Positions 1,255 through 49,200 of a DNA stretch of 64,000 nucleotides are shown piece after piece (positions within the stretch are counted from its first letter, which is position 1; every line of letters begins with the position of its first letter). This DNA is from Antedon bifida (Eukaryota; Echinodermata; Crinoidea; Comatulida; Antedonidae). The translations under genes and the position numbers were made by a program. The DNA lies in contig OY727095.1 in the NCBI GenBank assembly GCA_963402885.1, positions 25,797,001 through 25,861,000 on the forward strand. The letters run 5' to 3'. The notes below the pieces were generated by a model, which was given only the letters and a program-made list of their open reading frames with translations, had not been told where the DNA came from and searched no databases.

Positions 1255-4200
1255 CTCTCAATAAGAATCATTAAAGAAGAGTGGCCCTTATCAAAGTTCA
1301 TCGTTTGACATTTTGTAAAAATAATGCATATATAAACATTTAACCAGGTCATTTCTTGTCTTAAATGTGCGTTCTAAGGTTAATTGTGATAAAAAGAGAA
1401 AAACAATGCACTACCACATTCACTCGTAGACGTTTAGGCCTAGCTTAATAGCCCGACGTTTTTTTTGATTAATTTTCTTTCCTTTTTGGCAGAATCTGTT
1501 AAATACAATATTTGGGAAAACCTGGTATTTTAGCTGAAAAGTTACGGTTCTTTTATTTGTTTACACTTTCACGCGATTGATCGAAGTGAGTGCATCACAT
1601 CATGATATGAAAATATCAATCTGCGATGCATGTTGGGATTTATAGCGGGCTGCTAAAATTATTAGAATCGACTTATTTTTCACATTTTTAACTGTTTAAA
1701 GACGATTATCGCAGAAGGTCCATATAGTATTTATTTTTACATAAAATGTAGTGTGTGACCTTAAATTAGGTCCACCAAATGTAGGTCTAGTGTCTTTAAC
1801 ATTTTTGCATTCCATTTAGTTCTTGTTAATATATTTCTATGAAAAATTGCTATTCCATTGAGTTTGGCATTAGTTACAAATAATAATGTAAGATCATTTT
1901 TTGTGTGAAATAGTTACCTGTTTCTCTAGAGTTTTGAATTTAATCTGAAGGTGATCAAGCTGAAATTGTTTAGTTTTAAGCTGTTCTAAGTATTGCTGTC
2001 CTTCCTCCTCCATCTGAGTAAGCCTAGCCATTAGATTCTCATTGCGTATCTTGCTGCTGCTCAACTCTTCTTTTAATAGACTACAGTGCTGATGGATACA
2101 TTCAAACTCTGCCTTTAGAGTACATACTTGTGAATCTGATAAAATAAATTGTGAAACAAATTTAAAACTAGACATGAACTCGTCACTTTGAACGCCAGAT
2201 GCACGTCATATGTTAGAATATTGCGCACAGAAAAAAGATTATGCTATTATAAGCTGAAGAAAACAAAATGCTTTCAGTGTGCTCTCTATTTTGTGTCCAA
2301 GTATAATATAGGCCTACAGTATACACTATATACTGTGTACATACTACATACAGTGTAGCATTGGTGAAAATAAGGGACCCGCCTTTAATTCTAATTTTTA
2401 ACATGATGATGTCATCAAAATGAAAGACGAAGATACCAATTTCAGATGAAAATTGTCTGAGCAACAACATATTAACATGTTGAAGAAATTTGGATACATA
2501 GAATATAGATGCGTGCTCTTTTACAATTCAACTGGCCATATGATAACGTCACAACATCCGATGCGCAACATTTGTACATGAATTCATATCTACAATTCAA
2601 CAGCTTACAGGTGCCGGACCAGTGGGAGGTCGCCTCCTACAGTTTGTTCGAGAGTGGGAGAAGCTGATGGTAGACAGCTGGATTCTCTCCACATTAAGCT
2701 ACGGCTACCGCATAGAATTCACAAGCGTCATATAAATACATACATGATATGCGGTTTCCTGGGTATAAAATTCAAGATAATAAATACAGCAACAAAACAA
2801 ACATGACATAAAAAGTGAAAAATACAAACAGAACAATTAGTGTAACTGACAATTAAATAATTGGTTATGGAGAAGGTGTGTGGAGGTCCTCGTCCAACCA
2901 CAATCCCCAAAGATCCAATAAAGCAACGAGGGCTTATAGACGGAATTGCCACGCTGCTCCACAAAGGAGCCGTAGTAAGGGTCGAAGAACATCATGCGGG
3001 CTCGGGCCACGAATCAACCGTATTCTTAATCGAGAAGTCCTCGGAGGACTGGCGACTAATTCTAAATCTAAAACGTCTGAATAAACGATTTATCCGGCCC
3101 CGCAGGTTACGGATGGAGACAGTCTCATCGATCCTGTTAGGGCTAAGACGAGGAGACTGGGCCGCATCGATAGATTTAAAAGATGCATACTTTCACGTAC
3201 CAATCGCAAAAGAAGACCAACGTTGGTTGCGGTTTCGAATCAACAGTTGTCTCTACCAGTTCTTTGCAATGCCGTTTGGCCTATCAACGGCCCCGCGCAT
3301 GTTCATGCGCATCGTTCAAGTGCTCGGTGCGTTCTTTCACAAGAACGGCATTCACATATTTATGTATTATTAATAACGGAACACGTAGGGTTCTTAGTGA
3401 ACCGGGAGAAGTCGTGCCTGGTGCCGACTCAACATCCCATTTATCTCGGAGCGCAGATAGACCTCGTGTCAGGCAGAGTGTGCCCCTCACAGAAACGGGT
3501 AACCAAAGCCCTTGCTGCTATACAAGGCATGATTACCACTTCCGCTCCGACAGCATACGACTGGCTGAGAATGCTAGGTTTCCTAGCCATCTTTGTAGAT
3601 CTAGTTTTGTCGGCTACGGATGCGGCCGCTGCAACTTCATCTGTTAACCTTCTACCGGCCAGGTTCAGACTCATTAATAAAGTTCATTATAACGCAATTC
3701 CAATGGTGGCTAACGGACGGCCAATTGTTAGTGGGCAAATCAATTCAGAGATCAATTCCGGACACCCGAATAGAAACGGACACGTCCGAAGCAGGTTGGG
3801 GTGGTTGCTCCAACCAAAGTAATGACTCCAGCGTTTGGAATGCCGAGGAGGCGTTAGCCCACATCAATCTCTTAGAACTTTGGGCAGTAGACCGAATGCT
3901 GAAGGCGCTACTTCCAAACATAACAAATTCACACGTCCATATTTGCTCGGACAACACAACCGTGGTCGCATACATCAACCGACAAGGAGGAACGAAGTCT
4001 CCGACTCTCTGCTACACTGGTGCATCGCCACAACATAACATTCTGCAGTCGATACCGGGATGCACATGCGTGGGCGGTGGATGACCTGTCCATGTCATGG
4101 GACGGCCTATGGGCATACGCGTTCCCGCCAATATCAATCATACCAATAGTACCGACTCACATTCAGCGCTTCCGATGCCGAGTTCTGTTGATCACACCGT

Positions 4201-7200
4201 TCTGGCCCCGTCAAGCGTGGTATCCACTTCTTGTTAGTCTTTTAACGTCTGCACGGATCTACTGGCGCAAAATCGTGCAAGGTTCTCAGCGATCAACCTA
4301 CAATCCCTGAACCTGACTGTTTGGCCATTGTCAGGGATCAGCTTAGAGACTTGGGCATTCCGGACGGCCCAGCCACCCTGGCGGCCAAATGTAGAAGAGA
4401 GTCGACTCTCACCGTCTATGACACTTCTTTCGCTGTACGAATCAGGCTTGCAAGTACGCACTGTGTCAGGCTACCGGTCCGCGGTTGTGGCCATTACTCC
4501 GCCATTCAAGGATGGCTCGACGGTATCAACTTCCGCAGTAACCACGCAGTTGTTACGCGGTATGTTCAGAGAGCGACCTCCGTCTAAGGTCTTAGTTCCA
4601 CGTCGAGACGTAATCGTTGTTCTATCCGCACTCACGCGCCCGCCGTTCGAGCAAGGCTTCGCTATACAATCTATCGCTTAAGACAGCGTTTCTGGTGGCG
4701 TTGTCCTCATGTAAACGCCGAGGCGAGCTGCATGCGCTCACGCTAGAGCCAGGCCATATACGATTTGAGTGTGGCGGAGTCCGGTTAACATTCAGGAAGG
4801 ACTTTCTGGCCAAGTCCCGCCGGCTGTGTTTGTTCCATCAATGTCCGCATTCTCGGGGGTAGTAGAGGACAAATTCTGGTGCCCGGTAAGAGCACTCAAA
4901 TTCTACATCCACCGAACAGAGACGTTGCAAGAGGGTATATCTCACTTATTCTTCACATCGGTCCCCCCGTATCGGCCAGCCGCAAAATCCATGATTGCCA
5001 GCTGGGTCGTGGCAGCGATTCGGTCCGCTTATGAGTCGTCCAGCACTCCGCCGCCGGCACATATGCATGAGGTGTTGCTACATCCTGGGCATTGTACGCT
5101 GGTGTTTCTATATCACACATTATGACAGCGGCATGGTGGCGGACACAGTCTAAGTTTACTGCGCATTATTTAAGGGACATTTCTGCAACCATGGCGCCAG
5201 TAGCAGCAGCAGTGCTAAAGCCTAGGTTAAAGGTATGTACACTTTACTTGCTCTGCTCTTTGTTAACTTACTCCCACCGCCGACTAGTTCTAGTCCGGTG
5301 CTAATCTGGCTATTGTCGGTTTATACAGGTAAGCTAGGCACGATATAGACTACACAAACCAATAGTGGTGTTAGTAGTCTATGAGTTCTAGCTTACCTGT
5401 ATAAACTCCCTCCCGCCGTCCCCGCAGTCAATTAAGCGGAAAATGATGACGGTGGTACGTTGGAACGTTCCCACATGAGGGCGTGGTTGCGGACTGGTCC
5501 ATTATAATACAGGGGTGTTTTAGGAACTTTTCACTTTCGTATCTAAAGCCCTCCCCCTGGAGAGCACGGGCTATTGTTGGTTTATACAGGTAAGCTAGCA
5601 CTCATAGACTACTAACACCACTACTGTAATCATGAGTATCACTTTTCATTATGAGGAGCTATAACATATTGAAATTTACTGTAATGATGAAAATAAGTGA
5701 CCCAAGTAATTCACGCTTTTGAACATGATGACGTCATCAAAATTTAAAAATTGTAAATCATGTGAAAGATAATTGATTGACCTAGACAATATCAGAATCT
5801 GAAGGAAAATGGAATATTGATAATTAGAGATGCGGTCTATTAAATGTGATAAGTTATGAAGAAATAGACAAATATCCTATATGATATGATACGATGACGT
5901 CACAATGTCCGTTTAGCCTTATTGATGCATGATCGATATCTACAACTCATCAACTCCTAGAATATGTAATAAAAATAAATTTCACTGTTTACTTTAGAAA
6001 ATATGACTCTTTAAAAAAACACGCGCGAATTGTCTAATTCAAAGTGTTCGTTGCTGAAAATGGTCTACGCTTGTGGACGCATCCCTCTCCAAATAAAGGC
6101 AAACGGACCACTTTTTAGTCGCGTGTAACGCAACTCTACAGCTGTTGGTCGGTCGGTTAGTCAGTTGGGGCTCATAATGAATGGAAATCTGTCAGCAAAG
6201 ACAATGTTAAAAGATTTTTTTTAATTGCTATAATTCCTTTAACGTACTACTGCAAGGCAAATGTTCGAAATGCTCTCCAACCGTTATTAGATAAACATGG
6301 AGAACAATTACAGGATAAAGTATTTTGTATGTTACTCGCTGAAGTTATGAACATTGTCAATTCAAGTTCATTAGAATAAATAACACCTAACCACGTTTTA
6401 ACTCTTAATTTCATGTTTCAGTTACTTCAAACCAGGTTTATTTCAGGAACTGGGAGATAGTGCAGCATCTAGCAAATGAGTTTTGGCACCGATATAAACA
6501 TGAATACCTACAATTATTACAGACTACAAGACATAAATGGTAAACAGTCCAGGGAACCTATGGGAACTTGCCAGAGTCACTGACGTGACAAGTAGTGCAG
6601 ATGGGCTTTTTAAGAAGGTCAAAGACCCATTCCCTACAATTTGTGACGTTTTGTAGAAATAATGCATATATATTACTTTAAAAACATTAAACCAGGTCAT
6701 TCCTTGTCTTAAATATACGTTTTATGGTAAATTATGATAAAAAGAGAGACACAATGCACTACCTAAGTAGCTCGCGGTGAATGTCCTCTCGTGGGCAGTC
6801 TTTAGGCCTAGCCTAACTAGGCTTAGTTTTGTAGGCCTAGCTGGTAAACATCGGTAACGTACGAACATGGGTGAATTACAGAACAAAAACAGAAATATCA
6901 ATCCGCGCTCAATGCATGTTGGGATTTATAGCGGGCCGCTAAAATGATTAGAATCAACTTATTTTCACATTTTTAACCGTTTAAAGACTAGCAAAGTTAT
7001 CTCAATAGGACCATATAGTATTTATTTTTACATTAAATGTAATAATAATAATAATAATAAGCTTTATTTAATCACGGATACTTAACTCAACTAAAAGTTG
7101 TTTTTCAGTAAGACCGTGCTCAAAGGAAAACACCAACAAAAATAAATGTAAAAAGCAAATATCAAATCAAATAATAAAACAATTACAGAAGCAAAAAAAC

Positions 7201-10200
7201 AAAAGCAGATAATAAAACAATTACAATAAAATAAAACAAGGATACACTTACTAACTATAAAATTAAATAATACACTACATTTAAATAAAGCTACATGAAA
7301 TTAGCAGTTAACAGTTTCTTAAAAAGAGAGACAGAGTTCACATTTTTAATATCTTCATGTAGCTCATTCCAAACCTTGGCACCTCTATATGATAAGCTAC
7401 GTTTTTTGTAGTTTGTGTTTGGTTTTGGTACAATTAAATTTGGCTTAGTTCTAATATCATAGTAATTGTTTTTAATATTGAACTTATTTAATAAATATGG
7501 AGGTGCAAGGTTATTCATAATCTTAAACATAACAATAGCTTCATTTATATATAATCTTTCATCTAAGTTCATCCAATTTAGACTTTGTAGAGCTTGAGTA
7601 CTAGAGTCGGTTTGAGACTTGTTTGTAATAACTTTTGCTGCGCGATTTTGAAGAACTTGTAGTGTTTTACTTTGAGTTATATTTGAACGTCCCCAAACAA
7701 CATGGCAATACTCAAGATGAGGAGCCATAAGTGATTTGTATAGTTTGCATTGAATTTCTTTTGGAAATATATTATTAGTCTTTTTTAAGTAGTACAAGCT
7801 CTGCAAAACCTTAGATTTAACATTATCGATTTGTGAGCACCAAGAAAGATTATTATCTAATATCACACCAAGGTGTTTACATTTATTTACACGAGAGATT
7901 GGTTCTCCATCTATGTTAATGTTGACTTGTAAGTCAGATAGTTTACTTAACCTCTGACTCGTTCCAATTAACATAAATTCAGTTTTTTTAACATTTAGGC
8001 TAAGTTTGTTGCATATGAGCCATCTTTTAAGACACAATAAGTCAGAATTTATTGTTTCAGTAAGGTTATTAATATTATTGGAAGTGTAGTATATGGCAGT
8101 GTCATCAGCATACATAGAAACAGAGCATTTATTTACAGCATTAGGCAAGTCATTAACATAAAGGAGAAACATTAATGGTCCAAGGATGGACCCCTGAGGA
8201 ATTCCACATATACTGTGACTTTCATCAGAAGAATCACCATTTACATTGGTTATATGTACACGATTTTGCAGGTAGTTTTCAAACCACTGAATAACATTTG
8301 AATGAAAATTGAAAGATCTTAGTTTATTGATAAGAATACTGTGATTTACTGTATCAAAAGCCTTTTTCAAGTCTATCATTACTAACCCAATATAATTTCC
8401 TTTGTCAATGGCTTCTAGCCAGGTCTCTGTGATATTAAGCAATGCAGTCGTAGTTGAGTAGCCTGGTCTAAACCCAGACTGATTTTCATATAGCATTTTG
8501 TTTAGATTTAGGAAATCATAAACTTGTTCAAATACAACTTTTTCAAGAACTTTAGATAATATTGGGAGAATTGAAATTGGCCTATAATTATTACATTCAT
8601 TTTTATTTCCACCTTTATGAAGAGGGCAGATCTTGGCCCTTTTCCATTGTTTTGGAAAAGTTAAATTTTTTAAAGATGTTTGCATTATCATTTAGAGAGA
8701 TTGCTTTGAATTACCAGGCAGCTTGCTGGATTACTATGTTTTATTTTATTATAAGAAATACATTACAAAGAAATACAACTTGCAACATGTTTACTAGTCC
8801 TGGTTCCCTATTATACTATTCGGCCAAGTGTACTATTGAGGAAGCTGATAACAATTAATGTAAATCCTTATTTATGTTCATGGATATTGATAAGCAATTT
8901 TGTTACTGGTAGATGTCAACGAGTTAAGGTCAACAATTAATTTGAATTATATTGACCCAAATACGGGAACACCGCAAGGATGTGTGTCATCCCCACTTTT
9001 ATTTTCAATATATGTTAGTGATTTAAGATGTAATGTTAATTCATGTAACCTTATCAAGTTTGCGGATGATATGTGTTTTACTGGTCTTATTACAGGAGGA
9101 GATGAATTTGTATAGAGAAGAAGTATCAAGGGTTTTAGATTGGTGTAATACTAATTATTTGTGTATTAATTCTAAAAAAAACCAAAGGGCTTATATTCAG
9201 AAAAAATGTTAATCACATTCCACGGAAGTCATGTTGAAAATCTCATAAATATTTAGGGGTTTGGATAGATATGAATCTAAGTTGGGATACACATACATAT
9301 AAAGTGTATGCTAAAGGTGTTCAACGTCTGTATTCCTTAAGGAAGTTGAAACAATATTATATATAGGCCGTGATTTTAAATGTCATGAACTATGACGAAA
9401 ATTATGAAATTACGACTTTTATAATTGAACTGGTCATATGATGACGTCACAATATCCGATGCACATAATTTGTACATGAATTCGTATCTACAATTCAACA
9501 GCTTCCAGAAAACGTTTTAATCATGAGTATCACTTTTCATTCTGAGTAGCTATAACATATTGAAATTGATTGGAATGATGAAAATAAGAATCCAAAGTTA
9601 TTCACGCTTTTGCACATGATGACGTCATAAAAATTTTTAAAACGGTAAATCATGCGAAAGATAATTGATTGACCTAGACAATATAAAAATATGGGGGAAA
9701 TGGAATACGGATATTAAGTGAAGATGCGCTCTATTAAATGTGATAAGCTATGACGAAAGAGACAAAAATCCTATATTTTATATTTGAGTGGCCATACGAT
9801 GACATCACAATGTCCGGTTAGCCATATTGATACATGATTCGATATCTACAACTCATCATCTTCCAGAATATGTAATTTAAAAAAAGTTCACCATGTAGTT
9901 TAGAATCTATGACTGTTTAAAAAAGGGCATAATTTTGACAAATTTTTGAACTTTTTCATAAAAAACGCGTGCAAATTGTCCAATTCGACGTGCTCGTATG
10001 ACGTGAGTCGAAAGCGTTTGAAAGTTGGTAAAATTACTAGAAAAGGCTCGAAAAAAATAAATCACGCAAAAAAAGATTGTTTTAGCTCTACGGGCGCACT
10101 GAATTTTTGACATGCTTAAAATTACATGAAACGCGTAGAAAGTTGATTAGAAATTAATTTTTCGCATTTTAAACACGCATGCGCGTATAACTTTCTGTGA

Positions 10201-13200
10201 AACATGCCATTTTTTTTCCACAGAAAGTTAGCGCATGATATAAATTACACTTTTGCTAAATTTCAATTTGAATTGGTATATGGGTTTCGATCTATGTTAA
10301 ATACGCGAAATTCATAAAATTGCTGTGTGAAGTCATAAAACGAAGTTTCTTGCACATCTACAGCTACAGGTCAATCTTATGACAAAGTTATACAATCTTA
10401 TGTTGGCCAGAATTAGAGATACGCTGCGGACAAAATTTGTGAAAAGAAAGAAGAATAAGATAGAAGAAAAAAAAGATCGTGACAATAACAAGGGGTTATC
10501 CGCCAAGTGTGGATAACCAATAACAATATCACATCTTCAACCTAAACACATAGTAGGCCTACTTCTTGTAGTAAGGCCTAGTGTTTATAAATCAACAAAG
10601 TGTACGTCAGCTTCTCATTTGGCGAACAATTGTGACCAGCTAAGTGTAAATAACAAAAATAACATAGCGTTTTCAGGGGATTTCAGGACACCATATTAAT
10701 TTTTTTAATCCGGAGGGTCGTATGAGAAATCATTACAGAAGTTTAATTTAAACAGCAATTAAAATAATCACATGCTGAAGATGGCTGTGTTATACATTTA
10801 TATATAGGCCTATGCATTTGTATCTAAATTTTATAGACATCAGTGAGTTGTTGCAGTCAGTAAAATCTTGGTTCTTCAACAGATGGTAGTCCATTAATAA
10901 CTTGCTAGAGGATTCAACATCTGCACATTCTCATGGAAGACCAAAGAAAACAAACTGCAAATTTCAAAACTAAGAGGTCTAGTTACATTAAAATGGCCTA
11001 GCTTCAAAATCAGGGAAATCAATCTCACTATCATTGATATATTAGTATTTGCCATAGAGTAGCCCTTGAATGTGATGATTCAAATGATGCATTTAAACAC
11101 ATTGACAATGTGCAACTAATTATCACTCAGTTATGGAAGCTGTTTGAACATTCGCCCAAAAAGTGGCAGCTTACCAGAAGTGCCAACAAGAAGTATAAAA
11201 GTCTCTTCAGTTGGGTGAAAATGCAAAGAAAATAGTAACCAGAAAACTAAAAAAAAGCATGTAAAACAATTAGATGGCTATCTTGTGATGCTTCTATCAA
11301 ATCAGTTTTTAAGGACAGTATCATTCGTATTCTTCAAGCATTAAGTGAAACTAACAACTTTGGCTTACCGAAGAAAATAGACAGTGCTAAATGTATTGGT
11401 CCTGTAAACATTTTGCATTTTGTTTTACCAAATTTGTCGGAGATTTTCCATCAACTTCTCACAGTTGATGCCAAATGTGCTGCCTGCTGAGGTTTTATTT
11501 TGAAGGGTTAGAAGGTGATATTGTGGTTACTGTATCAAATAACAATTAGCTTATGCCTAAGGTTTTATTGAAGAGAAGAAAGTGATTTTTTAAAATGTTA
11601 TTGTTTTTAACACATTTCATAAAGCAACTGGTGTACAGAGAGAAATTGCCATTACGCTTGGTGAGACAATCCAAGAGAAGATAACTGCTATGCAATTTTA
11701 TGTGACGACTCATCGCATACTATGTCTGTGAAGTTGGTTACTAGTTCCTAGTTCCTTATTCAAATTCAATTAAAGGGACAGTCACAAATATTTTTAAAAA
11801 CAGATTTTAATAAGTAATAACTGTCTAATTGATTTGTTATTGCATCAACATGTTAGCCTTAACCTCCTCTACTTCTTCCGGTCAAAGTTCAATAACATTT
11901 TATGCATTTACACCCTCTACGGCGAATAAGTAACTAGCTTTTACGAACGTTATAATACTTGACCTACTTCCTTTTTTCAAAATATTTTGGTATGGATCGA
12001 TCACCCTTGACCTACTCTACCATTTGCCACCCCAGTTCCGCGAACTTTTTTGCGTCTACGCCCTCTACGGCGAATAAGTAACTGGCTTTACGAACGTTAT
12101 AACACTTGACCTACTTAATTTTTTCAAAATATTTTGGTATGGATCGATCACCCTTGACCTACTCTACCAATTGCTACCCCAGTTCCGCGAACTTTTTTGC
12201 GTCTACGCCCTCTACGGCGAATAAGTAACTGGCTTTACAAACGTTATAACACCTGACCTACTTAATTTTTTCAAAATGTTTTGGTATGAATCGATCACCC
12301 TTGACCTACTTTACCATTTGCCACCCCAGTTCCGCGAACTTTTTGGCATCTACGCCCTCTACGACGAATAAGTAACTGGCTTTACGAACGTTATAACACT
12401 TGACCTACTTAATTTTTTCAAAATATTTTGGTATAGATCGATCACCCTTGACCTTTTCTATCATTTTCCACCCCAGTTCCGCGAACTTTTTTGCGTCTAC
12501 GCCCTCAGCGGCGAATAAGTAACTGGCTTTTACGAACGTTATAACACTTGACCTATATATTTTTTTCAAAATATTTTGGTATGAATCGATCACCCTTGAC
12601 CTACTTTACCATTTTCCACCCCAGTTCCGCGAACTTTTTTGCATCTACGCCCTCTACGGCGAATAAGTAACTGGCTTTACGAACGTTATAACACTTGACC
12701 TACTTAATTTTTTCAAAATATTTTGGTATGGATCGATCACCCTTGACCTACTCTACCATTTGCCACCCCAGTTCCGCGAACTTTTTTGCGTCTACGCCCT
12801 CAACGGCGAATAAGTAACTGGCTTTTACGAACGCTATAACACTTGACCTACTTAATTTTTTCAAAATATTTTGGTATGAATCGATCACCCTTTACCTACT
12901 TTAAATGCTGTTTTAATTTCAGGTAGTCATGTTCTACTTGTGTTGAAAAGTGTTAATGAATAAAACGGAATAAATAACTTGTGGTTATCGTTTTTAACCA
13001 AACTGTTGTATTTGTGTTTGCTTCAGAAATTATCTTCTAGAATCGTAACAAGTCAAAACAAAACTAAAATGAATTCGCCGTAAAAGGACATAGGTAAAAG
13101 TTCGCGGAACTAGTTTGGCAAATGGTAAAGTAGTCAAGGGTCATCTACCCATAACAAATTAATTATTCGCCGTAGAGGGCGTCGATGCAAAAACTATTTG

Positions 13201-16200
13201 GAAAAAATTAAGTAGGTCAAGTGTTATAACGTTCGTAAAAGCCAGTTACTTATTCGCCGTAGAGGGCGTAGACGTAAAAAAAGTTCGCGGAACTGGGTGG
13301 CAAATGGTAGAGTAGGTCAAGGGTGATCGATTCATACCAAACTATTTAAAAAAAATTAAGTAAGTCAAGTGTTATAACGTTCGTAAAGCCAGTTACTTAT
13401 TCGCCGTAGAGGGCGAAGATGCAAAAAAGTTCGCGGAACTGGGGTGGCAAATGGTAAAGTAGGTCAAGGTTGATCGATCCATACCAAAACATTTTGAAAA
13501 AATTAAGTAGGTCAAGTGTTATAACGTTCGTAAAGCCAGTTACTTATTCGCCGTAGAGGGCGTAGACGCAAAAAAGTTCGCGGAACTGGAGTGGCAAATG
13601 GTAGAGTAGGTCAAGGGTGATCGATTCATACCAAAATATTTTGAAAAAATTAAGCAGGTCAAGTGTTATAACGTTCGTAAAGCCAGTTACTTATTCGCCG
13701 TAGAGGGCGAAGATGCAAAAAGTTCGCGGAACTGGGGTGGCAAATGGTAAAGTAGGTCAAGGTTGATCGATCCATACCAAAACATTTTGAAAAAATTAAG
13801 TAGGTCAAGTGTTATAACGTTCGTAAAGCCAGTTACTTATTCGCCGTAGAGGGCGTAGACGCAAAAAAGTTTGCGGAACTGGAGTGGCAAAAGGTAGAGT
13901 AGGTCAAGGGTGATCGATTCATACCAAAATATTTTGAAAAAATTAAGCAGGTCAAGTGTTATAACGTTCGTAAAGCCAGTTACTTATTCGCCGTAGAGGG
14001 CGAAGATGCAAAAAAGTTCGCGGAACTGGGGTGGCAAATGGTAGAGTAGGTCAAGGGTGATCGATCCATACCAAAATATTTTGAAAAAATTAAGTAGGTC
14101 AAGTGTTATAACGTTCGTAAAGCCAGTTACTTATTCGCCGTAGAGGGCGTAGACGCAAAAAAGTTCGCGGAACTGGAGTGGCAAATGGTAGAGTAGGTCA
14201 AGGGTGATCGATTCATACCAAAATATTTTGAAAAAATTAAGCAGGTCAAGTGTTATAACGTTCGTAAAAGCTAGTTACTTATTCGCCGTAGAGGGCGTAA
14301 ATGCATAAAATGTTATTAAACTTTGACCGGAAGAAGTAGAGGAGGTCAAGGCTAACATGTTGGTGCAATATCAACTCAATTAGACAGTTATTACGTATTA
14401 AAATCTGTTTTTTTTAAATATTTGTGAATGTCCCTTTAATTGAATTTGAATAAGGAACTAGGAACTAGGAACTAGTAACCAACTTCACAGACATTCGCAT
14501 ACTGCTCAAATGGAGCAAATGATATCTTTTATTATTTATTGTTTGGTAAAATCACATGAATCATTCAAATTAAGCTTTGGCTATTATATATATGTGAATT
14601 CGGAATTACTGTCCCAACTGAACAAGGCACAACTTAAAGTTTAGGATGTTTAAAAACATTTAAATCTGGAAAATGTCATTTGTCAAATTTATGTTTGTTT
14701 TTTAAATTATTTTGGCAAAAATATTTTTTCAGGCAATAATAAATTATATATATACCCTTTTTTACCCTTCTTAGCTGAAAGGAGACGTTTCATGTCCCAC
14801 TGTTGTCAATTTTGTCATTTACGTTGTGAAACAACCAATTTTCTAACGGAAAAACTCCATCTCGTACTACATTAATTTATTACGAATTTATAATTGCTTG
14901 TATATTCAATGTACGTTTGAAAGTGCCAATCGTGGTCTATAATTCAAGAAAAACACACATTTTGAATGTATCGATAAAAGCGTAAAAGTCTAGGACTAGC
15001 CTACACTCCATACAGGTTCATAGGGTGTTAGATTTTTCCCTGAAATGTTCTGATTATCAACATAATTATTATCTACGAAAATACTATACAATTCAATTAT
15101 TTTTAAGTATTTAATTACAAACGTATAACAACAGCGTAAATTTTACAAAAACGTAAACAACGGGACTGGAAGAAGTAATTGCCTTATATTGTTAATGGCA
15201 TAACTAAATACGGCGGGGATTTTCCTCGGATTTCTTAATAGACTTTGCGTAATAATAGTCTACTGCATTGTTTTCTTCGTCATACAGGGTCAGGGCAATT
15301 ATGGCATGTAGCCTAAAAATTCACAACGTAAAACATTGACGAGACTTGAATTCAAAACCTTCTGTTTTAAGGTTAAGATTTACACGATATATGCTAACAG
15401 ATGATCAGATAGGTTGGTGCTCTGTAGATAAAAATTTTCTTGAAAGTTTCGGTTCTAGTAGTCCATGGGATTTAGCTAAAAAATGACCCTTTTCTCACAC
15501 AAATTGCAAGAAAAGGTTTTTTTGATGAAATGTGTTCTTTAGACCCTACTGAACACATTTATCAACGTTAGGACATTTTTCGACAACAGGAAGTAGCCTA
15601 ATTTGCATAATTAAAAATGGCCGCCATTTTTAATAACGTACTCTGTATCTTGGAAACCGCTAGTCACAGATACTTAATTATGGTGTCAAAATCGTTAGAA
15701 TATATGTTTTTATATTCACTTTATTGAAAAAGTTTGTCCAAAAATGAATGAAAGTGCTATTTCTAACATTATTGACCTTTGACCTTGAATTCTCATATCT
15801 CAGCAACCACTAATCGGAGATATACAAATTAGGGCTTAAATTGTTCAGAAACTACACATTTATATCCAGTCTAATGGCATGTTTTTGCAAAAAATGGCCG
15901 ATTCTAACATTATTGACCTTTGACCTTGATTTATCATATCTTAGCAACCACTAATCTGAGAGACACACAATATGGCTCAAACTGTTCAGAAACTACATAT
16001 TTATATTTAGTCTAATGGCATGTTTTTGCAAAAAATGGCCGATTCTAACATTATTGACCTTTGAACTTTGCACTACATAAAATCGCATAACTTTGAAAAT
16101 ATTGTACATATGAAAATATTTTTAGTGTCAAATTGTTCAAAACATACATGTTTCTATAGAGTCCAATGACACCTTATGTCCAATAATGGCCTATTGTATG

Positions 16201-19200
16201 GTCGTTAACATTTGAACTATATTTGAAAAGGATTTTTAAACCCGGAATCTTCTTCATGTAGGCATTCATTAAAACATGTGATTTGGCACTACTTGTTTAG
16301 AATATGGTGGTAATTTAAAGTGCATGTACAGTAAGGATAGCATCACTCTTGAGGGCATTCTTTTAGGTTGAAACATTATTAATAAGGCCTTTTCTACTAC
16401 TAGACGCATTGTTGACAACTGGAATTTTAAAAGGTCGATATTAATGCAACATATTTAGTTTAGTTTAATTAATTAGCTATCGAGACTCATAATTAGGCTG
16501 ACCACCACTTGCAATATTTTCGCCGTATACAGTTAAAACCTCAGTTTCTTATGGAATTTATTTATTTATTTCAATAACCATATACAGTATGACTACTAGT
16601 GGTGTATAGTTTTTTACCTTTTATAATTTGTTTTTGTACCTTTTTTACGTGAATGTATTGTGTATGTACCATGTTTCTATGTGGTTTAATTTTTACCATT
16701 TTTTAACCATCATTTTAATGCTTTTAATATAAATATCTTGTAATTCAGCTTCGCTGCGAAGACGATAAGAAATAAAATAAACAAACGTGTAAACTTGTAG
16801 GCAGTTTATGAATGAATGCAATAGTTTATGCTTATACATTTAATGTACCATGGCCTACTTTAAACTAAACATAATAAGTCAACGTTGCAACTCTTACATT
16901 TTAGAGTGCCAAATTACATGTTCTAATGGTCAAGGTCAATAATGTTAGAATCTGAACAAAAACATGCCATTAGATTAAATATAAATATGTAGTTTCTGAA
17001 CAGTTTGAGCCATATTGTGTGTCTCTCAGATTAGTGGTTGCTAAGATATGATAAATCAAGGTCAAAGGTCAATAATGTTAGAATCGGCCATTTTTACAAA
17101 AACATGCCATTAGACTGGATATAAATGTGTAGTTTCTGAACAATTTAAGCCCTAATTTGTATATCTCCGATTAGTGGTTGCTGAGATATGATAAATCAAG
17201 GTCAAAGGTCAATAATGTTAGAAATAGCACTTCCATTCATTTTTGGACAAACTTTTTCATTAAAGTGAATATAAAAACATATATTCTAACGATTTTAACA
17301 CCATAATTAAGTATCTGTGACTAGCGGTTTCCAAGATACATAGTACGTTATTAAAAATGGCGGCCAATTTTAATTTTGCAAATTAAGCTACTTCCCGTTG
17401 TCGAAAAATGTCCTAACGTTGATAAATGTGTTCAGTAGGGTCTAAAGAACACATTTCATCAAAAAAACCTTTTCTTGCAATTTGTGTGAGTTAAAAGTCT
17501 AAATCCCATGCGACTATAGGGACAAACTGACACTTCAAGTCCATCGATTTGGAATTCTGGCAAGATGCAGGGCAAGGTATTCCAGACAGACAGAGAGTTT
17601 TCACCCAATTTTTAGTCGCGTGCAACAGCAGCTCATTATGTCGGTTGGTTGGTCGGTCAGTTGGTCGGTAAACACTAACTTGAGCACGAGACTGCAGCCA
17701 TGTATATGGCCTTGTTGAACAAAAGGCTTACCAGAGTTTTAAAATGTTAAATAAATGTTAAATGTAATGCATTCTGGTCCTCAAGTTTAACTGGAAACTG
17801 AGGAAATTCGGATTAGGCCTTCCTCGGAACCACGGCAGCCAGCAGTGAAGCGCCTACCAGATCAGCACACTGGGAGACGATCCCCTACTCTTTTTGAATA
17901 GTGTACCAAGTTCTTTAACGTGCACTGTTAAGTACACGGGACCAACGGCTTTACATCCTATCCAAAGGATGAGGCAATGAGAGTAAAGCATCTTGCCTAA
18001 GGATGCAATTAGTATGGTACAGATAACCTCGAACCCATGCCTATCACATGCTAGTCCGATATTACTATTACACCATCACTCTCCGATATATACAGCACCC
18101 GCCGCTATTTCTAGACGGTCTCCCAGCGGGCCCAACGTTGCTTAACTTCGGTGATCTGACGAGAACCAGTGTTTCAACGCAGTATAGGGGATGAAAAGTC
18201 TCAGTCAAAAGGTAATTCACTTCTAGTTCACCTGTCTTTTTATCAACATTTGATGAATGATGATCCATGATTTTGCCCACTTCCAACCTACATAGGTTGT
18301 TGTCATGTAGTGCAGATATTGTTTTCTCTAAGTGTTTTATTGTGAGATGCAGTTCTTTGTTCTCACTCGCAAGCTGATCAATAGTTCTATAAATTAAAGC
18401 AATGACAATAATAATGATTTTGTACATAGATTGCATTCATGTGTAGTCATCAATTTTAATTTAAATATTAATGTTATACCTATATCTATACAAGATAAGA
18501 CGATTTAAAGACACTAGATCTGCAATTTTTAACATTTTGTAAAAATAATTTAATTTAAAAATTTAAAAACATTAAACCAGGTCATTTCTTGTCTTAAATG
18601 TGCGTTCTAAGGTTAATTGTGATAAAAGGAGAAAAACAATGCACTACCCAAGTAGCTCGTGTCAAAAGTTCTCTTAGCTAATACCCCTTTCACACCAAAA
18701 GCAAAACACTTTGGAGTTGATGTCCCTGTGTTGTGAAAGGTAAAATCCAACAACTCCAGAGTTCAAAACAGCGGGGTTGAACAGCTGAACGTTTTCCGAA
18801 CTGCAGGGACACACCAGTGTTTTGGTATGAAATGTACCAACATCAAACTCTGGAGTTTTTAGGTCAAAAGATCATCAATCATTGCTTAGTTTTATTTCGA
18901 AATACTTTAAATATTTGTACAAAATATATAGCGGGTCTAAAAAATAATAATAGTCCTTACGTCGAACGTGAAAAGTAGCCTAGAAACAACATCTCGTTGC
19001 TCATCAAAAATAGTTTTTGACGCCATAGGCTGTTATATATAAATACTATAATGCTAAAATGAAAGAGTTCCATGAAAAATAACCTGTCATTTGGTGAAAA
19101 ATTAGCCTCTAAATCGGTAAACTTTTGTTTGTTTGCCTGGGTCAATTATTGAATAAGTTAGGACTGATTTACCCGCACAGAATGTTATCGTCCAAGGTGA

Positions 19201-43200: not shown

Positions 43201-46200
43201 TTTAAAAAATACTTAGTAAAGTATAACAATTGAGGTTAGTGTGATTTAGGCTATTATTTAAACAGACAAGCCTTCTGTATAACAAATGAAAACAATTTTC
43301 AAGTAGTTTTTATACTGTAACCCAATTTATTCTGTAACATTCTAATAGAACATGGAAGTAACTTCAGGCTTGCAAGTATGTCTCATCTGCAATGGTTTGA
43401 AGGGATCGCTATCAGACAGAGAATTGACTTTCAATAAAAAACAAAGGATTAAGTACTTTCCTTAACTCTTGCGATGAGCTTCAGGATGACGTGGCCGAAA
43501 GGGTCAAACATATTCGGAATACCAACCAACCAATATCAAATATAAAATTTCACTTTCAGTGTAGGTCATTATATACAGATACACAGAAGCGTGCACTTGC
43601 AGAGAAACGGAAGCAAGAGAACAACGATAATCTCAAAATAAAGCGCATATCTCGAGAAGAGTCTTCATTATTTTCATGGGATGAACAGTGTTTCATATGT
43701 GGTAAGCAATAAATAAAAAGAAGTGTGTATTTTTAACAAAAGTAAATGTGAAGCCAAAAGAGTTACGTCACAAAATATTCAAAATTGCCAGTGAAATTAA
43801 TGACACTGCTGTCATACAGCTTCTTTCTTTTCATGAGGATATTTTTGCTTTAAATGCAAAATATCACAAGCGATGTTACCAAACATACACATGTAAACGT
43901 AACATACAAACAAAAACACACACACTAAACATTAAGGCGGAAAACAATGTAGATAGCTTAGTTAAATCAACTTTTCAACATTTTAAACCTGTTTTAGATA
44001 ATGGTAATATTGTTCTTTTATGTGACATGCGAAATTTCTACAATGAATGTAAAGACACCGATAAGATCATTTTTTATAAAACAAAAGTTGATGAAATTGT
44101 ATGGTGATGAATTAACATTTTATTATCAAAAAGGGTCAGCAGATGTTGTATGTAAAAGTTTGATGATGTCTATAGGAAATGTACTGAAAGAAATAAAAAA
44201 TATTGAAACTGGAACTGATGCCAACATTAGTGCAGATTGGGATGAGAATGAGGATCACATTCTTTACAAAGCTGCTAGCATTCTTCGTAGAGATATAGAG
44301 AACATCGATCCAACAACACACTATCCAACTGCAGATGAAGTTCATCTTGTAACCTCTGCTGCTTTCCTTGCACACACACTGCGAAGATTCATGTCATTTG
44401 AAAAGCCATGGTGATTATTTCAACTCAGATTACATTGACAAGTTTCCAACGTTTTATTCCACCAAGGACATTGTGTGGAGTTTGCTTCGCCAAGTATCAA
44501 GAGGCATATATAATATACCACAGCATATACACTATTCTCATTCACAAGTGATTCCCTTCTGGACAGGTTTCAATTCAACTAAGTCAAAGAGAAATATGAA
44601 AAGTGTCACGGTCATTGCATATCCACCCATTATAGAAGCACCACCATCTGATATGAGCACTGTATACACAACACTCATACGAGGCAAGGAGTTAGTAGAG
44701 AAGTGTGGACAACCTTTTCATATACATACATTTGACCAGCAGCTATACGCTATTGCACAAATGGTACAATTAAGTCACCAACAGGAATTTCCTAACCTTG
44801 TAATTCGCCTAGTAGTAGAGCAGTTAATGACATGAGCTGTGCATTTTATTACCAAAGCATGAAACTTGGCACAAAGTTTCTTTAATGTATATTATAGATT
44901 CAAAATATCGGGGGGTGCCAAGTGTCCAACGTCCGGTATGGCGGCCATCTTGATTTCAAAATGGCCACCATAAAAACAAAAAATGTTCATATCTTGGCAA
45001 CTATACACATTAGAGACTTAATTCTGGTCTCAAATTGTTCACAAACTATATATTTCTATTTGCTCTAATGAAAATTTTCGTCCAAAAATGACCGGAAATG
45101 ACGTTTCTTTCAGTTTGACCTTTGACCTCGTATTTGTATATCTCTGTAACTACTGGTCATTTTCAATCGATTTTGGTGTCATTTTGTTCAGAATAAATAC
45201 ATTTATATTTGTAGTAATGAAACATTTTCAAATAAAATGACCGGAAATACAATTTATGACCTTTGACATTTAATTATTGAATTTTAATTATGTGAATATA
45301 CTGTATGTGGTTTTTGTTGGTCTTAAATGCACCTAATTTTGAACTTTGACCTGATAGGCGTAATAATATTAAATGATTAATGGACTTAAATTGTATATAG
45401 TACATAAAATTGGTAAACAGTGTGCTTGGTGGTACCATTAGTTCAATGATGTTGGCACCTTCTGATTCGCTAAAAGTTTTAATAGTTTGACAGAGGAAAT
45501 AACATGTTATGGAATACCGTAAAACCTCGAAAAGGTGATAGTATGAGCTTCTTTTCGAGATAGACTGTATTTGAATGTCAAATGAATAGTATGATGATCG
45601 TGTTTATATCAATATATTATTAATGACCTTACAAAGAACCCTTTATATTTCAACAATCAATCCTCAGTTATTCTACAATTTTTTGTTTTCCAAGTGGTAG
45701 GCCTATTTTGATTGCATCTTCTTTTTGTAGGCCTATGCTTCCTCGGTAATATGGTCCTACCCCTCCTTCTTTGTCTGTAGATGGTCTTATACCCCATTCT
45801 TTGTCTGTGGATGGTCTTATACCCCCCTTCTTTGTCTGTGGATGGTCTTATACCCGCTTCTTTGTCTGTGGATGGTCTTATACCCCCTTCTGTGTCTGTT
45901 GATGGTATTACACCCCTTTCTTTGTGTGTGGATGGTCTTACACCCCTTTCTTTGTATGTAGATGGTCTTACACCCCTTCTTTGTCTGTGGATGGTCCTAC
46001 ACTCCCTTCTTTGTATGTGGATGGTCCTACACCCCCTTCGTTGTCTGTGGATGGTCCTACACCCCCTTCTTTGTCTGTGGATGGTCTTATACCCCCTTCT
46101 TTGTTTGTGGATGGTCTTGAACCCCTTTCTTTGTCTGTGGACGGTCTTATATCCCCTTTTTTGTCTGTTGATGGGATTTCACCCCTTTCTTTGTCTGTTG

Positions 46201-49200
46201 ATGGTATTAAACCCCTTTCTTTGTGTGTGGATGGTCTTACACCCCTTCTTTGTCTGTGGATGGTATTACACCCCTTTTTTTGTGTGTGGACGGTCCTACA
46301 CCCCTTTCTTTGTCTGTGGACGGTCCTACACCCTTCTGTGTGGATGGTCTTATACCCCCTTCTTTGTGTGTGGATGGTCTTACACCCCCTTCTTTGTCTG
46401 GACCCACTACTTTGATTGATTAAATCAAGACCTTCAAAGTGAAAGTCCACAGGTGGATGCCTAAAAAGGTCTTGTACAGAACAGTATATTGTAGGTCCAT
46501 GTCACTAATTTGAGAATTACTTGAATATATTGAGATGTCTTTTACGAATTGATTTGGTTCGGATTTTGCTAAAAAATCAATGACTAGAGAAAATCGAGGA
46601 AAAGGATTCAGATGGTTTACAGCAAAGGCCCATTACCATAAAAATGGAGTACATTTTTTTAGATGCAACGAAAATGAACAAGAACCATCTGAGTTTCTGA
46701 CTAATGAAAGTAGGTCTACTGCACAAATGCAGGATAAGTTTGTAGTATGTACTTTGAAAGACGGTGTTCTCTTAACTCATGAAAATGAGAACTTTCCGAA
46801 CTTGTCTCATATGCAACATCAAAGAGGCCAACGAAAGAATGCTACTTTACATCAAAAATATTTCCAAATGGCATCTAACAATTCAATTCAACTTTTATTT
46901 CAGACAATTGTCCATATGGTATAATACATTGCAAAAAAAAAAAAAAAAAGATGAAGGAGAGAGGACCAAAAATTTTATCTAACGATTGACACATCACAGT
47001 TTAGCAAACAAGTCGGCATAGATGAGCTCAGTGATTGCTGTTTCTCAGTGATCTGTCATACTTTACGCCTATCACATAAAAAATTCAGAATAATAATTCC
47101 TGGTCATTTTTGCATTAAGTGTCATTTATTTCGTTAAAAAAAATTAGGTGCATTTATACCAATGTAAACCACATACAGTATGTTCACATACTTATATATG
47201 TCAAAGGTTATAAATTGTATTCCAGTCATTTTATGTGAAAATGTTTCATTACTACAAATATAAATGTCTCTATTCTGAACCAAATGACACCAAAATCGAT
47301 TGAAAATGATCAGTAGTTACCGAGATATACAGATAAGAGGTCAAAGGTCAAACTGGAAGAAACGTCATTTCCGGTCATTTTTTGACGAAACTTTTCATTA
47401 GAGCAAATAGAAATATGTGGTTTGTGAACAATTTAACACCAGAATCAAGTCTCTACTGTTTATAGTTGCCAAGATATGAACACTTTTTGTTTTTATGGTG
47501 GCCATTTTGAAACCGGACATGGACACTTGGCACCCCCCGATATTTTTAATCTATATACATCAAAGAAACTTTGTGGCAAGTTTCATGCTTTGGTAATAAA
47601 GTGCACAACTTGGCTATTTTTATGGCGCTAACTGCTCTACTATAGGCGGATTTCACACAATGGCAACTTTTATTGCATGTATTGGAAAAATGGGGAGATG
47701 CAGGCCTAAATGATATGTTGGCGGATTCTAATGTGTTCGCTCCAGCAAGTGTGGAGATGATGTTGTCAGGAAAGCAGTTCCATCAGGGGACTGACCTTGG
47801 TTTATGAAGCACTTATCCATCAGCTCATTCACAATTTTTGTATATGGTTAGACGAAAGAAAGCAAATTGAAGATCTAGACGAGTGTGTGAACTGTAACAG
47901 AGTTACAAAAGATGTTTGCAACTAGCAGAGACATATCGAATGAAAACACAACTGATCTCACTGCAATGAAAGAGAAGTTAATACCTCTTTTGGAATTTAT
48001 TGAATGTGGACGGCAAGCTTCTTCGACGTTTGCTTTCTGGGAGCATTTTCTTAACGTCATACAAATAATGCTTTCCAACATAAGAGCAGAAAGAGAAGGT
48101 GACTGGAAGTTACATATTTGCAGCCAAATGAACATGCTGCCATATTTTTTTGTTGCAGACCGACCATATTATGCTCGATGGGGAACACTGTATGGTTTAG
48201 AAATGGTTAATTCCCTCCCTGAATCGGTTTCTAAGGCATTTGATGGAAAGTTTTCAGTCAGACAGACACCAGGGAAGTTTAAGGGAATTTGGACAGACAT
48301 GGGAGTGGAGACGACAATTATAAAAGATAGCAAGATCAACAGCGGCATAATAGGATTGACACGTAGAGGTTCAGCTGTACTGAGGTGGACATGCATACTA
48401 GGTCTAGGTCAGTATGCCAAAATGATGCATCAGAGAAGTGGAAAGAAAACTGCTGATACAGATTGTCATGAGCAAACTAAACCAGCCCTGATGAAAAGAG
48501 ATGAATCCGATGCACAACAAATAATAAATCACATACACAATAACATGACCGATCCATTTGCTACATCATCACACCCACTAATGCTTGTAAACTTAGGCAC
48601 AGGACTTGTTTCTACAAAACATTGCTGCTAAAGGCCAGAAGATGTTAGATGACTTTGTCAATTCTCGCTTGGTTGTAAATCCAGGGAAGAACAAATCTTT
48701 CTACCATCCAATTACAAGGTCTGGGGTGAAAACTTACAGACATCTGATGGAAACTACAAATGTAAAAATCAAAGGAAAGTTGAAAATAGCTCTATCACCA
48801 GAATTGATATATCAAAGAGCATTTTTTGTCAAAAGTTAGACCAGAGGAGAACTTGACTACAGTTCTAAGTTATCCTGTAACTGCTATTCCACCATCATTA
48901 TTCAAAGAAGACGAAGAACAAACAAATCAGACCTGCTTCATGCCCTTGAGGACAATGTGAAACATTTAACAACAGCAGACCTCCCACCATCAGAACTAAC
49001 ATCTGCTGTTCTAATAGATGTAATGACGGATATATAATATGACATCATTCGCTGATATCGGAGATTTTTGTTTCGAGAAAATCAAGAAGCTGCTCTGTTC
49101 GAATGAAGAGGTGCATTTGAAGTGTATAAATGAAAATGTGTTATTGTTAAATAATTTGCGTAATTTTACTTCGATGCTATGTAATACCACTTTCACACCA

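What the first reader, a model, noticed from the sequence alone, without database searches (positions are those of the whole stretch)
11713..14503. Complete foldback transposon with exact 9-bp target duplication
Perfect outer TIR, perfect TCGCATACT duplication and tandem 147-bp units in opposite orientation in both arms make a textbook foldback element, inserted in a decayed hAT-like gene. No transposase inside, so it must be mobilised in trans.
Basis: partly seen in the sequence, partly recalled or inferred. Interest (0 to 1): 0.8.

Follow-up and report, generated by a model that had tools for sequence, protein, structure and literature searches.

The report
Foldback transposon and its probable driver
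A 2.8-kb hairpin-like piece of mobile DNA sits in this genome with an exact 9-letter duplication around it, at a site that exists empty elsewhere, and it looks like a shrunken copy of a 17.6-kb element that probably carries the enzyme that moves the whole family.

Summary
Window 11722-14494 is a foldback element flanked by a perfect 9-bp duplication. A duplicated segment on the same contig carries the same site empty, with one copy of the nonamer.

The 34-base end occurs 136 times in the 315.6-Mb genome at up to 3 mismatches. Of 40 two-ended copies examined, 31 have an exact 9-bp duplication, 3 have 10 bp, 2 have 9 bp with one mismatch, 4 have none.

A likely partner was found. Two 17.6-kb copies share the ends; one has a 1855-codon open frame. 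The window copy's right 1601 bp is 99.4% identical to a 4.1-kb class, which is collinear with the 17.6-kb form minus its interior. The protein has a MULE-like D-D-CxxH-E order, in-frame 46-residue repeats beside the core, and a possible Cys-peptidase tail resembling USPL1 only weakly. Pfam's MULE model does not match it.

"Perfect outer TIR" is wrong over 195 bp (95%, 7-nt indel). The hAT claim was not confirmed.

The window element is an ordinary non-autonomous copy; the large partner is a new variant of a known kind.

The parts
11713..11721 (.). left copy of the 9-bp target-site duplication TCGCATACT
   Evidence: present once in the empty site
11722..14494 (.). complete non-autonomous foldback element, 2773 bp
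   Evidence: end sequence found at 136 places in the genome
11722..11908 (+). left outer terminal repeat (187 nt), start ATGTCTGTGAAGTTGG
11898..12900 (+). left array, about 6.8 tandem 147-bp units
12895..13190 (.). middle spacer; from base 12895 on the sequence matches the right part of the 4.1-kb class and bases 15437-15749 of the 17.6-kb element (read as an internal-deletion junction); degenerate unit pieces at 13096-13198
13191..14310 (-). right array, about 7.6 tandem 147-bp units in opposite orientation
14300..14494 (-). right outer terminal repeat (195 nt)
14495..14503 (.). right copy of the 9-bp target-site duplication

Best explanation
The window element is a young, non-autonomous foldback DNA transposon. 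SHOWN: it is a discrete insert with a 9-bp duplication of a site that exists empty elsewhere; dispersed copies share its ends and mostly 9-bp duplications; it is collinear and nearly identical with the right part of a 4.1-kb class, which is collinear with a 17.6-kb element (A1, C10:3506092-3523717) that has the same ends and a long open frame. INFERRED: the short forms arose from the long one by internal deletion; the A1 protein is a DDE transposase that binds the terminal repeats (probably several sites in the 147-bp arrays), cuts the element out, joins it to target DNA with a 9-bp stagger, and also moves copies such as this one in trans; arrays change by whole units through unequal exchange or slippage. 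The role of the peptidase-like tail is unknown; my guess is that it removes SUMO from the transposase or a host factor.
For: Empty site with a single TCGCATACT in a duplicated segment (1198 identities, 35 gaps, 7 substitutions in 1240 columns). 136 ends against 0 in the backward control. TSDs 31 of 40 exact 9, 3 of 40 exact 10, 2 of 40 nine with one mismatch. A copy nested in another copy's TIR: the target ATTAAAGGG is duplicated there and present once at that spot in the window TIR. A1 and A2 share the ends and differ at 21 of 17362 aligned bases, plus 12 gaps. A1 has a stop-free frame of 1855 codons. A protein search of the whole genome (41 of 41 candidates scored) finds only A1, A2, one decayed copy and one distant relative. 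Window right part 99.4% over 1601 bp to the 4.1-kb class; spacer 99.4% to A1 over 313 bp. D, D, CxxH and E in the order of two canonical MULEs of this genome, by a hand-made pattern found in 1 of 20000 shuffles; these residues are kept in the 25-36%-identical relative.
Against: No credible Pfam match and no PDB match to the transposase core: the weak Pfam rows (DUF4650 E 0.0011, Tox-HDC E 0.0047) are below their cut-offs and I take them as chance. Single-sequence hhalign to two canonical MULEs was no better than 20 shuffles. The DDE pattern was written after seeing the sequences, and a first, stricter version matched none of the three. The genome holds 69 MULE-model matches at E<=1, 36 marked over the cut-off, which could in principle act in trans. 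A2 has two frame-shifting gaps and no TSD, so only one open copy is known. 4 of 40 copies have no TSD. Not all copies are collinear with A1: 35 of 37 middles matched A1 at least in part; L013 did not, L031 had no middle, and L048 was left out because no right-arm unit was recognised. No expression or activity data.
Confidence: 0.8

Rival explanations
1. The family is moved by one of the canonical MULEs of the genome, and the 17.6-kb copies are foldback elements that captured an unrelated ORF.
For: 69 matches to the Pfam MULE model exist in the genome, 36 marked over the cut-off; the A1 protein is not matched by that model; TSD size fits MULEs.
Against: None of the 69 places lies between paired family ends among the 100 ends listed (compared by eye; 36 ends were not listed). 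Most shorter copies are collinear with A1 minus its interior, the usual picture of an autonomous element and its offspring. A diverged relative of the same protein keeps the putative catalytic residues.
Confidence: 0.12
2. A P-type or other superfamily transposase drives it, as in Galileo, and the MULE-like look is superficial.
For: Foldback structure arises in several superfamilies (PMC3169594, passages; PMC3573991, search listing); core not recognised by the Pfam MULE model.
Against: 9-bp TSD in most copies, where P-type elements are recalled to make 7-8 bp; no THAP domain in the parts scanned with Pfam; D1-D2 distance 72 lies in the 60-76 range printed for arthropod MULEs (PMC13359780, passage), though D2-E 234 lies outside the printed values (up to 214).
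Confidence: 0.06
3. The structure is an inverted duplication or recombination product, not a transposon.
For: 4 of 40 copies, including A2, lack a TSD.
Against: The empty site and the nested copy show discrete insertion with a 9-bp duplication; dispersed copies share the ends.
Confidence: 0.01

Closest known systems
FB / FB-NOF foldback of Drosophila melanogaster
   Same: Long internally repetitive inverted arms, and a foldback carrying a large ORF (both recalled).
   Different: No NOF sequence was available to compare. FB-NOF is called non-autonomous in a 2013 title (Badal et al., seen only in reference lists); here one copy has an open frame with transposase-like residues.
Tm1 (Meloidogyne), Mutator/Foldback, Phantom subclass
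   Same: Composite foldback-like TIRs of variable length, 9-bp TSD, a transposase-coding copy plus other copies (PMC3169594, abstract and passages).
   Different: Tm1 has 13-15 bp repeats and a 496-aa Phantom-like protein; here 147-bp units, a 1855-codon frame, and no Pfam MULE or FLYWCH match.
Tetris (Drosophila virilis)
   Same: Foldback with about 220-bp internal tandem repeats and 8-10 bp TSDs (PMC4079207, abstract and passages).
   Different: Its authors found no autonomous copy; here a candidate is in the same assembly.
Rehavkus (MULE outgroup)
   Same: 9-bp TSD and a minisatellite (PMC6446971, table and passages).
   Different: Rehavkus has a PHD finger and its minisatellite lies before the 3' TIR; here no PHD was matched in the parts scanned and the minisatellite is in frame on both sides of the core.
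Galileo (P superfamily foldback)
   Same: Long repetitive TIRs; there the repeats hold further transposase-binding sites (PMC3688188, abstract).
   Different: P-type transposase with a THAP domain; none seen here.

Membership tests
Foldback transposons (structural group) | Long inverted termini built of tandem subrepeats | tested here: met
Foldback transposons (structural group) | Discrete insertion with target duplication | tested here: met
   empty site
MULE superfamily | TSD of 8-11 bp, mostly 9 | tested here: met
   34 of 40 exact 9 or 10 bp; 2 of 40 nine with one mismatch; 4 of 40 none
MULE superfamily | Transposase matched by the MULE DDE profile (PF10551) | tested here: not met
   hmmscan; 69 places in the genome, none at A1 or A2
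MULE superfamily | DDE residues with CxxH between D2 and E | tested here: inconclusive
   residue order present, but by a pattern made after inspection and loosened once; hhalign no better than shuffles
Rehavkus | PHD finger in the transposase | tested here: not met
   no PHD in the 1102-aa tail, the core or the joined C-terminal part; the N-terminal repeat part of the 1855-codon frame and any upstream exon were not scanned
NOF | Homology to the NOF protein | not testable with these tools
   no NOF sequence held
Peptidase C98 (USPL1-like) | Pfam C98 profile or clear homology | tested here: inconclusive
   USPL1 is the only PDB match (two sequences of one protein, E 0.13 and 0.19) over the His/Asp box; Pfam none; PF15499 rings at one other locus of the genome, not at A1 or A2

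The most novel reading that the evidence does not exclude
The 17.6-kb element is an autonomous foldback transposon of a lineage outside the profiled MULEs: a DDE transposase flanked by an in-frame 46-residue minisatellite and fused, through three exons, to a USPL1-like SUMO isopeptidase that controls transposase or host SUMO state.
Probability: 0.25. Interest if true: 0.75.

Novelty: new variant of a known kind. Interest (0 to 1): 0.55.

Why it matters
Some foldback families, such as Tetris, are known only without their driver. Here short copies, intermediate deletion classes and a full-length copy with an open frame sit in one assembly with near-identical ends, plus an empty site and a self-insertion. 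That makes the question of what moves a foldback, and what the repeat arrays are for, testable with one protein and a few ready-made substrates of 1.2 to 4.9 kb with different unit numbers.

Tried and rejected
Canonical MULE as the coding content: no match at A1/A2 by Pfam. Relatives in viral contigs and genome contigs: pattern hits, none confirmed by tblastn. PHROGs: none. Ectopic recombination as the cause of A2's missing TSD: neither reciprocal flank-end junction was found at up to 1 mismatch; the three other copies without TSD were not tested this way. Protein-level constraint on the 46-residue repeats: pN/pS 0.75 over 22 units, so weak. hhalign of the core to two canonical MULEs: uninformative. 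Target preference: none clear; in 31 nine-base TSDs, inner positions are 66-73% A+T and the two outer ones 49%, against roughly two thirds A+T in the window. A genome search with the window spacer and one with the last peptidase exon did not complete. A first look for the empty site stopped 131 bp short because the paralog has its own insertion; the site was then found from the neighbouring long-repeat element. hAT assignment of the flank: no Pfam support. Not examined: the 36 family ends not listed, and the 20 regions asked for (two with both ends known, 18 with one).
Full report
OBSERVATION. TRF finds 6.8 and 7.6 copies of a 147-bp unit in the two arms, and the arms pair as inverted repeats over about 1.19 kb at 93.7%. 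The outer repeat is not perfect: 187 against 195 nt, a 7-nt indel, one further gap and nine substitutions.

PROOF OF INSERTION. The flank is a decayed ORF region with a close paralog on the same contig: a 79-aa piece is 99% identical at C8:22748174-22748410. The neighbouring long-repeat element has a 100% match at C8:22745015-22745285. The stretch between them (L068) aligns to the joined window flanks over 1240 columns (1198 identities, 35 gaps, 7 substitutions), straight across the insertion point. It carries one TCGCATACT and no element. So either the insertion is younger than that duplication, or the paralog lost its copy by precise excision, which is known for a MULE (Muta1 in yeast, PMC5225508, passages). 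Both need a discrete mobile unit. A second natural case is L040: one copy sits inside another's terminal repeat with ATTAAAGGG duplicated; the window's own TIR has it once at that spot.

FAMILY. The genome is 315.6 Mb in 27 contigs and the window is C8:25797001-25861000. The terminal 34-mer occurs 136 times at up to 3 mismatches (78 forward, 58 reverse), with 0 in the backward control; 100 of the 136 places were listed, all exact. I fetched 40 stretches covering 38 places, which with the window give 40 two-ended elements; they were chosen because both ends had been seen, so they are not a random sample. TSDs: 31 exact 9 bp, 3 exact 10 bp, 2 nine with one mismatch, 4 none (A2, L014, L016, L020). 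As a control, 28 of 35 same-element nonamers matched and 0 of 1190 cross-element ones did (the window copy, A1, A2 and L040 were left out of that count). Motif counts of units range from 0 to 13 per arm. Some lengths recur (4136 bp four times, 4608 five, 4313 three, 4272 two, with the outer L040 element), and 4313 and 4608 differ by two units. Of 484 units collected, 194 were distinct.

THE LARGE COPIES. Two copies are 17.6 kb: A1 (C10:3506092-3523717, 10-bp TSD) and A2 (C12:11699974-11717646, no TSD). They differ at 21 of 17362 aligned bases plus 12 gaps, three of them large: one 138-bp coding repeat, one 148-bp array unit, and 236 bp near the right arm. A1 has a stop-free frame of 1855 codons; against it A2 has a 2-base and a 1-base gap there. 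A genome-wide protein search with 41 of 41 candidates scored found A1, A2, a decayed copy at C14:9678753-9681325 and a broken relative at C12:12343110-12345735, 25-36% identical piece by piece.

DERIVATION. The spacer of the window copy is 99.4% identical to A1 15437-15749 over 313 bp. Its right 1601 bp is 99.4% identical to the 4136-bp class (L018, L021, L022, L030). That class, and the 4313- and 4608-bp ones, match A1 only from 13705 on between their arms, so A1's roughly 1263-13705 is absent. An older subfamily is about 90-93% similar; L034, 4301 bp, belongs to it. Of 37 middles compared, 35 matched A1 at least in part; L013 did not, and L031 had no middle; L048 was not compared. I read this as internal deletion; the direction is inferred.

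THE PROTEIN. The core lies between in-frame 46-residue repeats: 17 motif hits before it and 6 after, or 16.2 and 5.3 copies of a 138-bp unit by TRF. Constraint among 22 units is weak (pN/pS 0.75). The core has D, D, CxxH and E with distances D1-D2 72 and D2-E 234; two canonical MULEs of this genome have 63 and 69, and 114 and 117. My first pattern matched none of the three; the loosened one matched all three and 1 of 20000 shuffles of the core. A 2026 survey of arthropod MULEs prints 60-76 for D1-D2 in most families, and mostly 120-135, up to 214, for D2-E (PMC13359780, passage). The need for the triad and the CxxH histidine is shown by mutagenesis of Muta1 (PMC5225508, passages). The residues are kept in the broken relative. 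Against this, PDB sees nothing in the core, Pfam gives only chance-like rows below cut-off, the MULE model rings 69 times in the genome, 36 over the cut-off, but not at A1 or A2, and hhalign to two MULEs is no better than shuffles. I therefore say it works like a MULE and leave membership open.

THE TAIL. Past the frame, two further exons with GT-AG borders stay open in A1 and A2; no transcript was available. The joined 300 residues have a Cys box (NTCTVDN), a CxxxC, and a His/Asp box; that these are catalytic is recalled from the USP/USPL1 fold, not tested. The only PDB matches up to E 10 are two sequences of one protein, SUMO isopeptidase USPL1, at E 0.13 and 0.19, over the His/Asp box. Pfam gives none. 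The C98 profile rings elsewhere in the genome (C9:1535319-1537121), not at A1. This is a lead, not a result. One paper in the library holds both 'USPL1' and 'transposase', on adipocytes by its title and the start of its abstract (listing only).

KNOWN KINDS. Foldback structure has arisen in more than one superfamily (Tm1 and Tetris papers, passages; Galileo abstract). Tm1 is the nearest published arrangement that I saw: foldback-like TIRs, 9-bp TSD and a coding copy. Rehavkus shares the 9-bp TSD and a minisatellite but has a PHD finger (PMC6446971, passages), not found here in the parts scanned. In Galileo, repeats in the TIR hold extra transposase-binding sites (PMC3688188, abstract); I transfer that role to the 147-bp units by analogy only.

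VERDICT. The window element is a well-proven but ordinary non-autonomous foldback copy. Its value is that its likely driver, intermediates and an empty site are all present in one assembly, and that the driver has an unusual protein.

Noticed in passing
window 15493-17497: A second long-inverted-repeat element (arms about 15493-16028 and 16957-17497, 97% complementary) with about two tandem 140-bp units per arm; no exact duplication of 8 bp or more found. A genome search with 40 of 209 candidates scored gave 40 full matches and 12 short ones, with at least eight +/- pairs 1.5-2.6 kb apart.
   Followed up: partly
window about 9773-15760 and C8:22745015-22749910: Segmental duplication: the paralog lacks the foldback but has its own insertion of about 1.6 kb at the position of window 11590.
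   Followed up: partly
window 7294-8691 (-): Open 466-aa reverse transcriptase frame, Pfam RVT_1 E 1.2e-38, probably a non-LTR element.
   Followed up: no
window 45751-46400: Minisatellite of about 22 copies of a 30-bp unit, with long open frames on both strands.
   Followed up: no
L009 and L010 (A1), element bases 6739-8972 and 10917-11645: 138-bp coding minisatellite inside the transposase frame; A1 and A2 differ by one whole repeat.
   Followed up: partly
genome G000: 69 matches to the canonical MULE profile at E<=1, 36 marked over the cut-off, several in frames over 600 codons.
   Followed up: no
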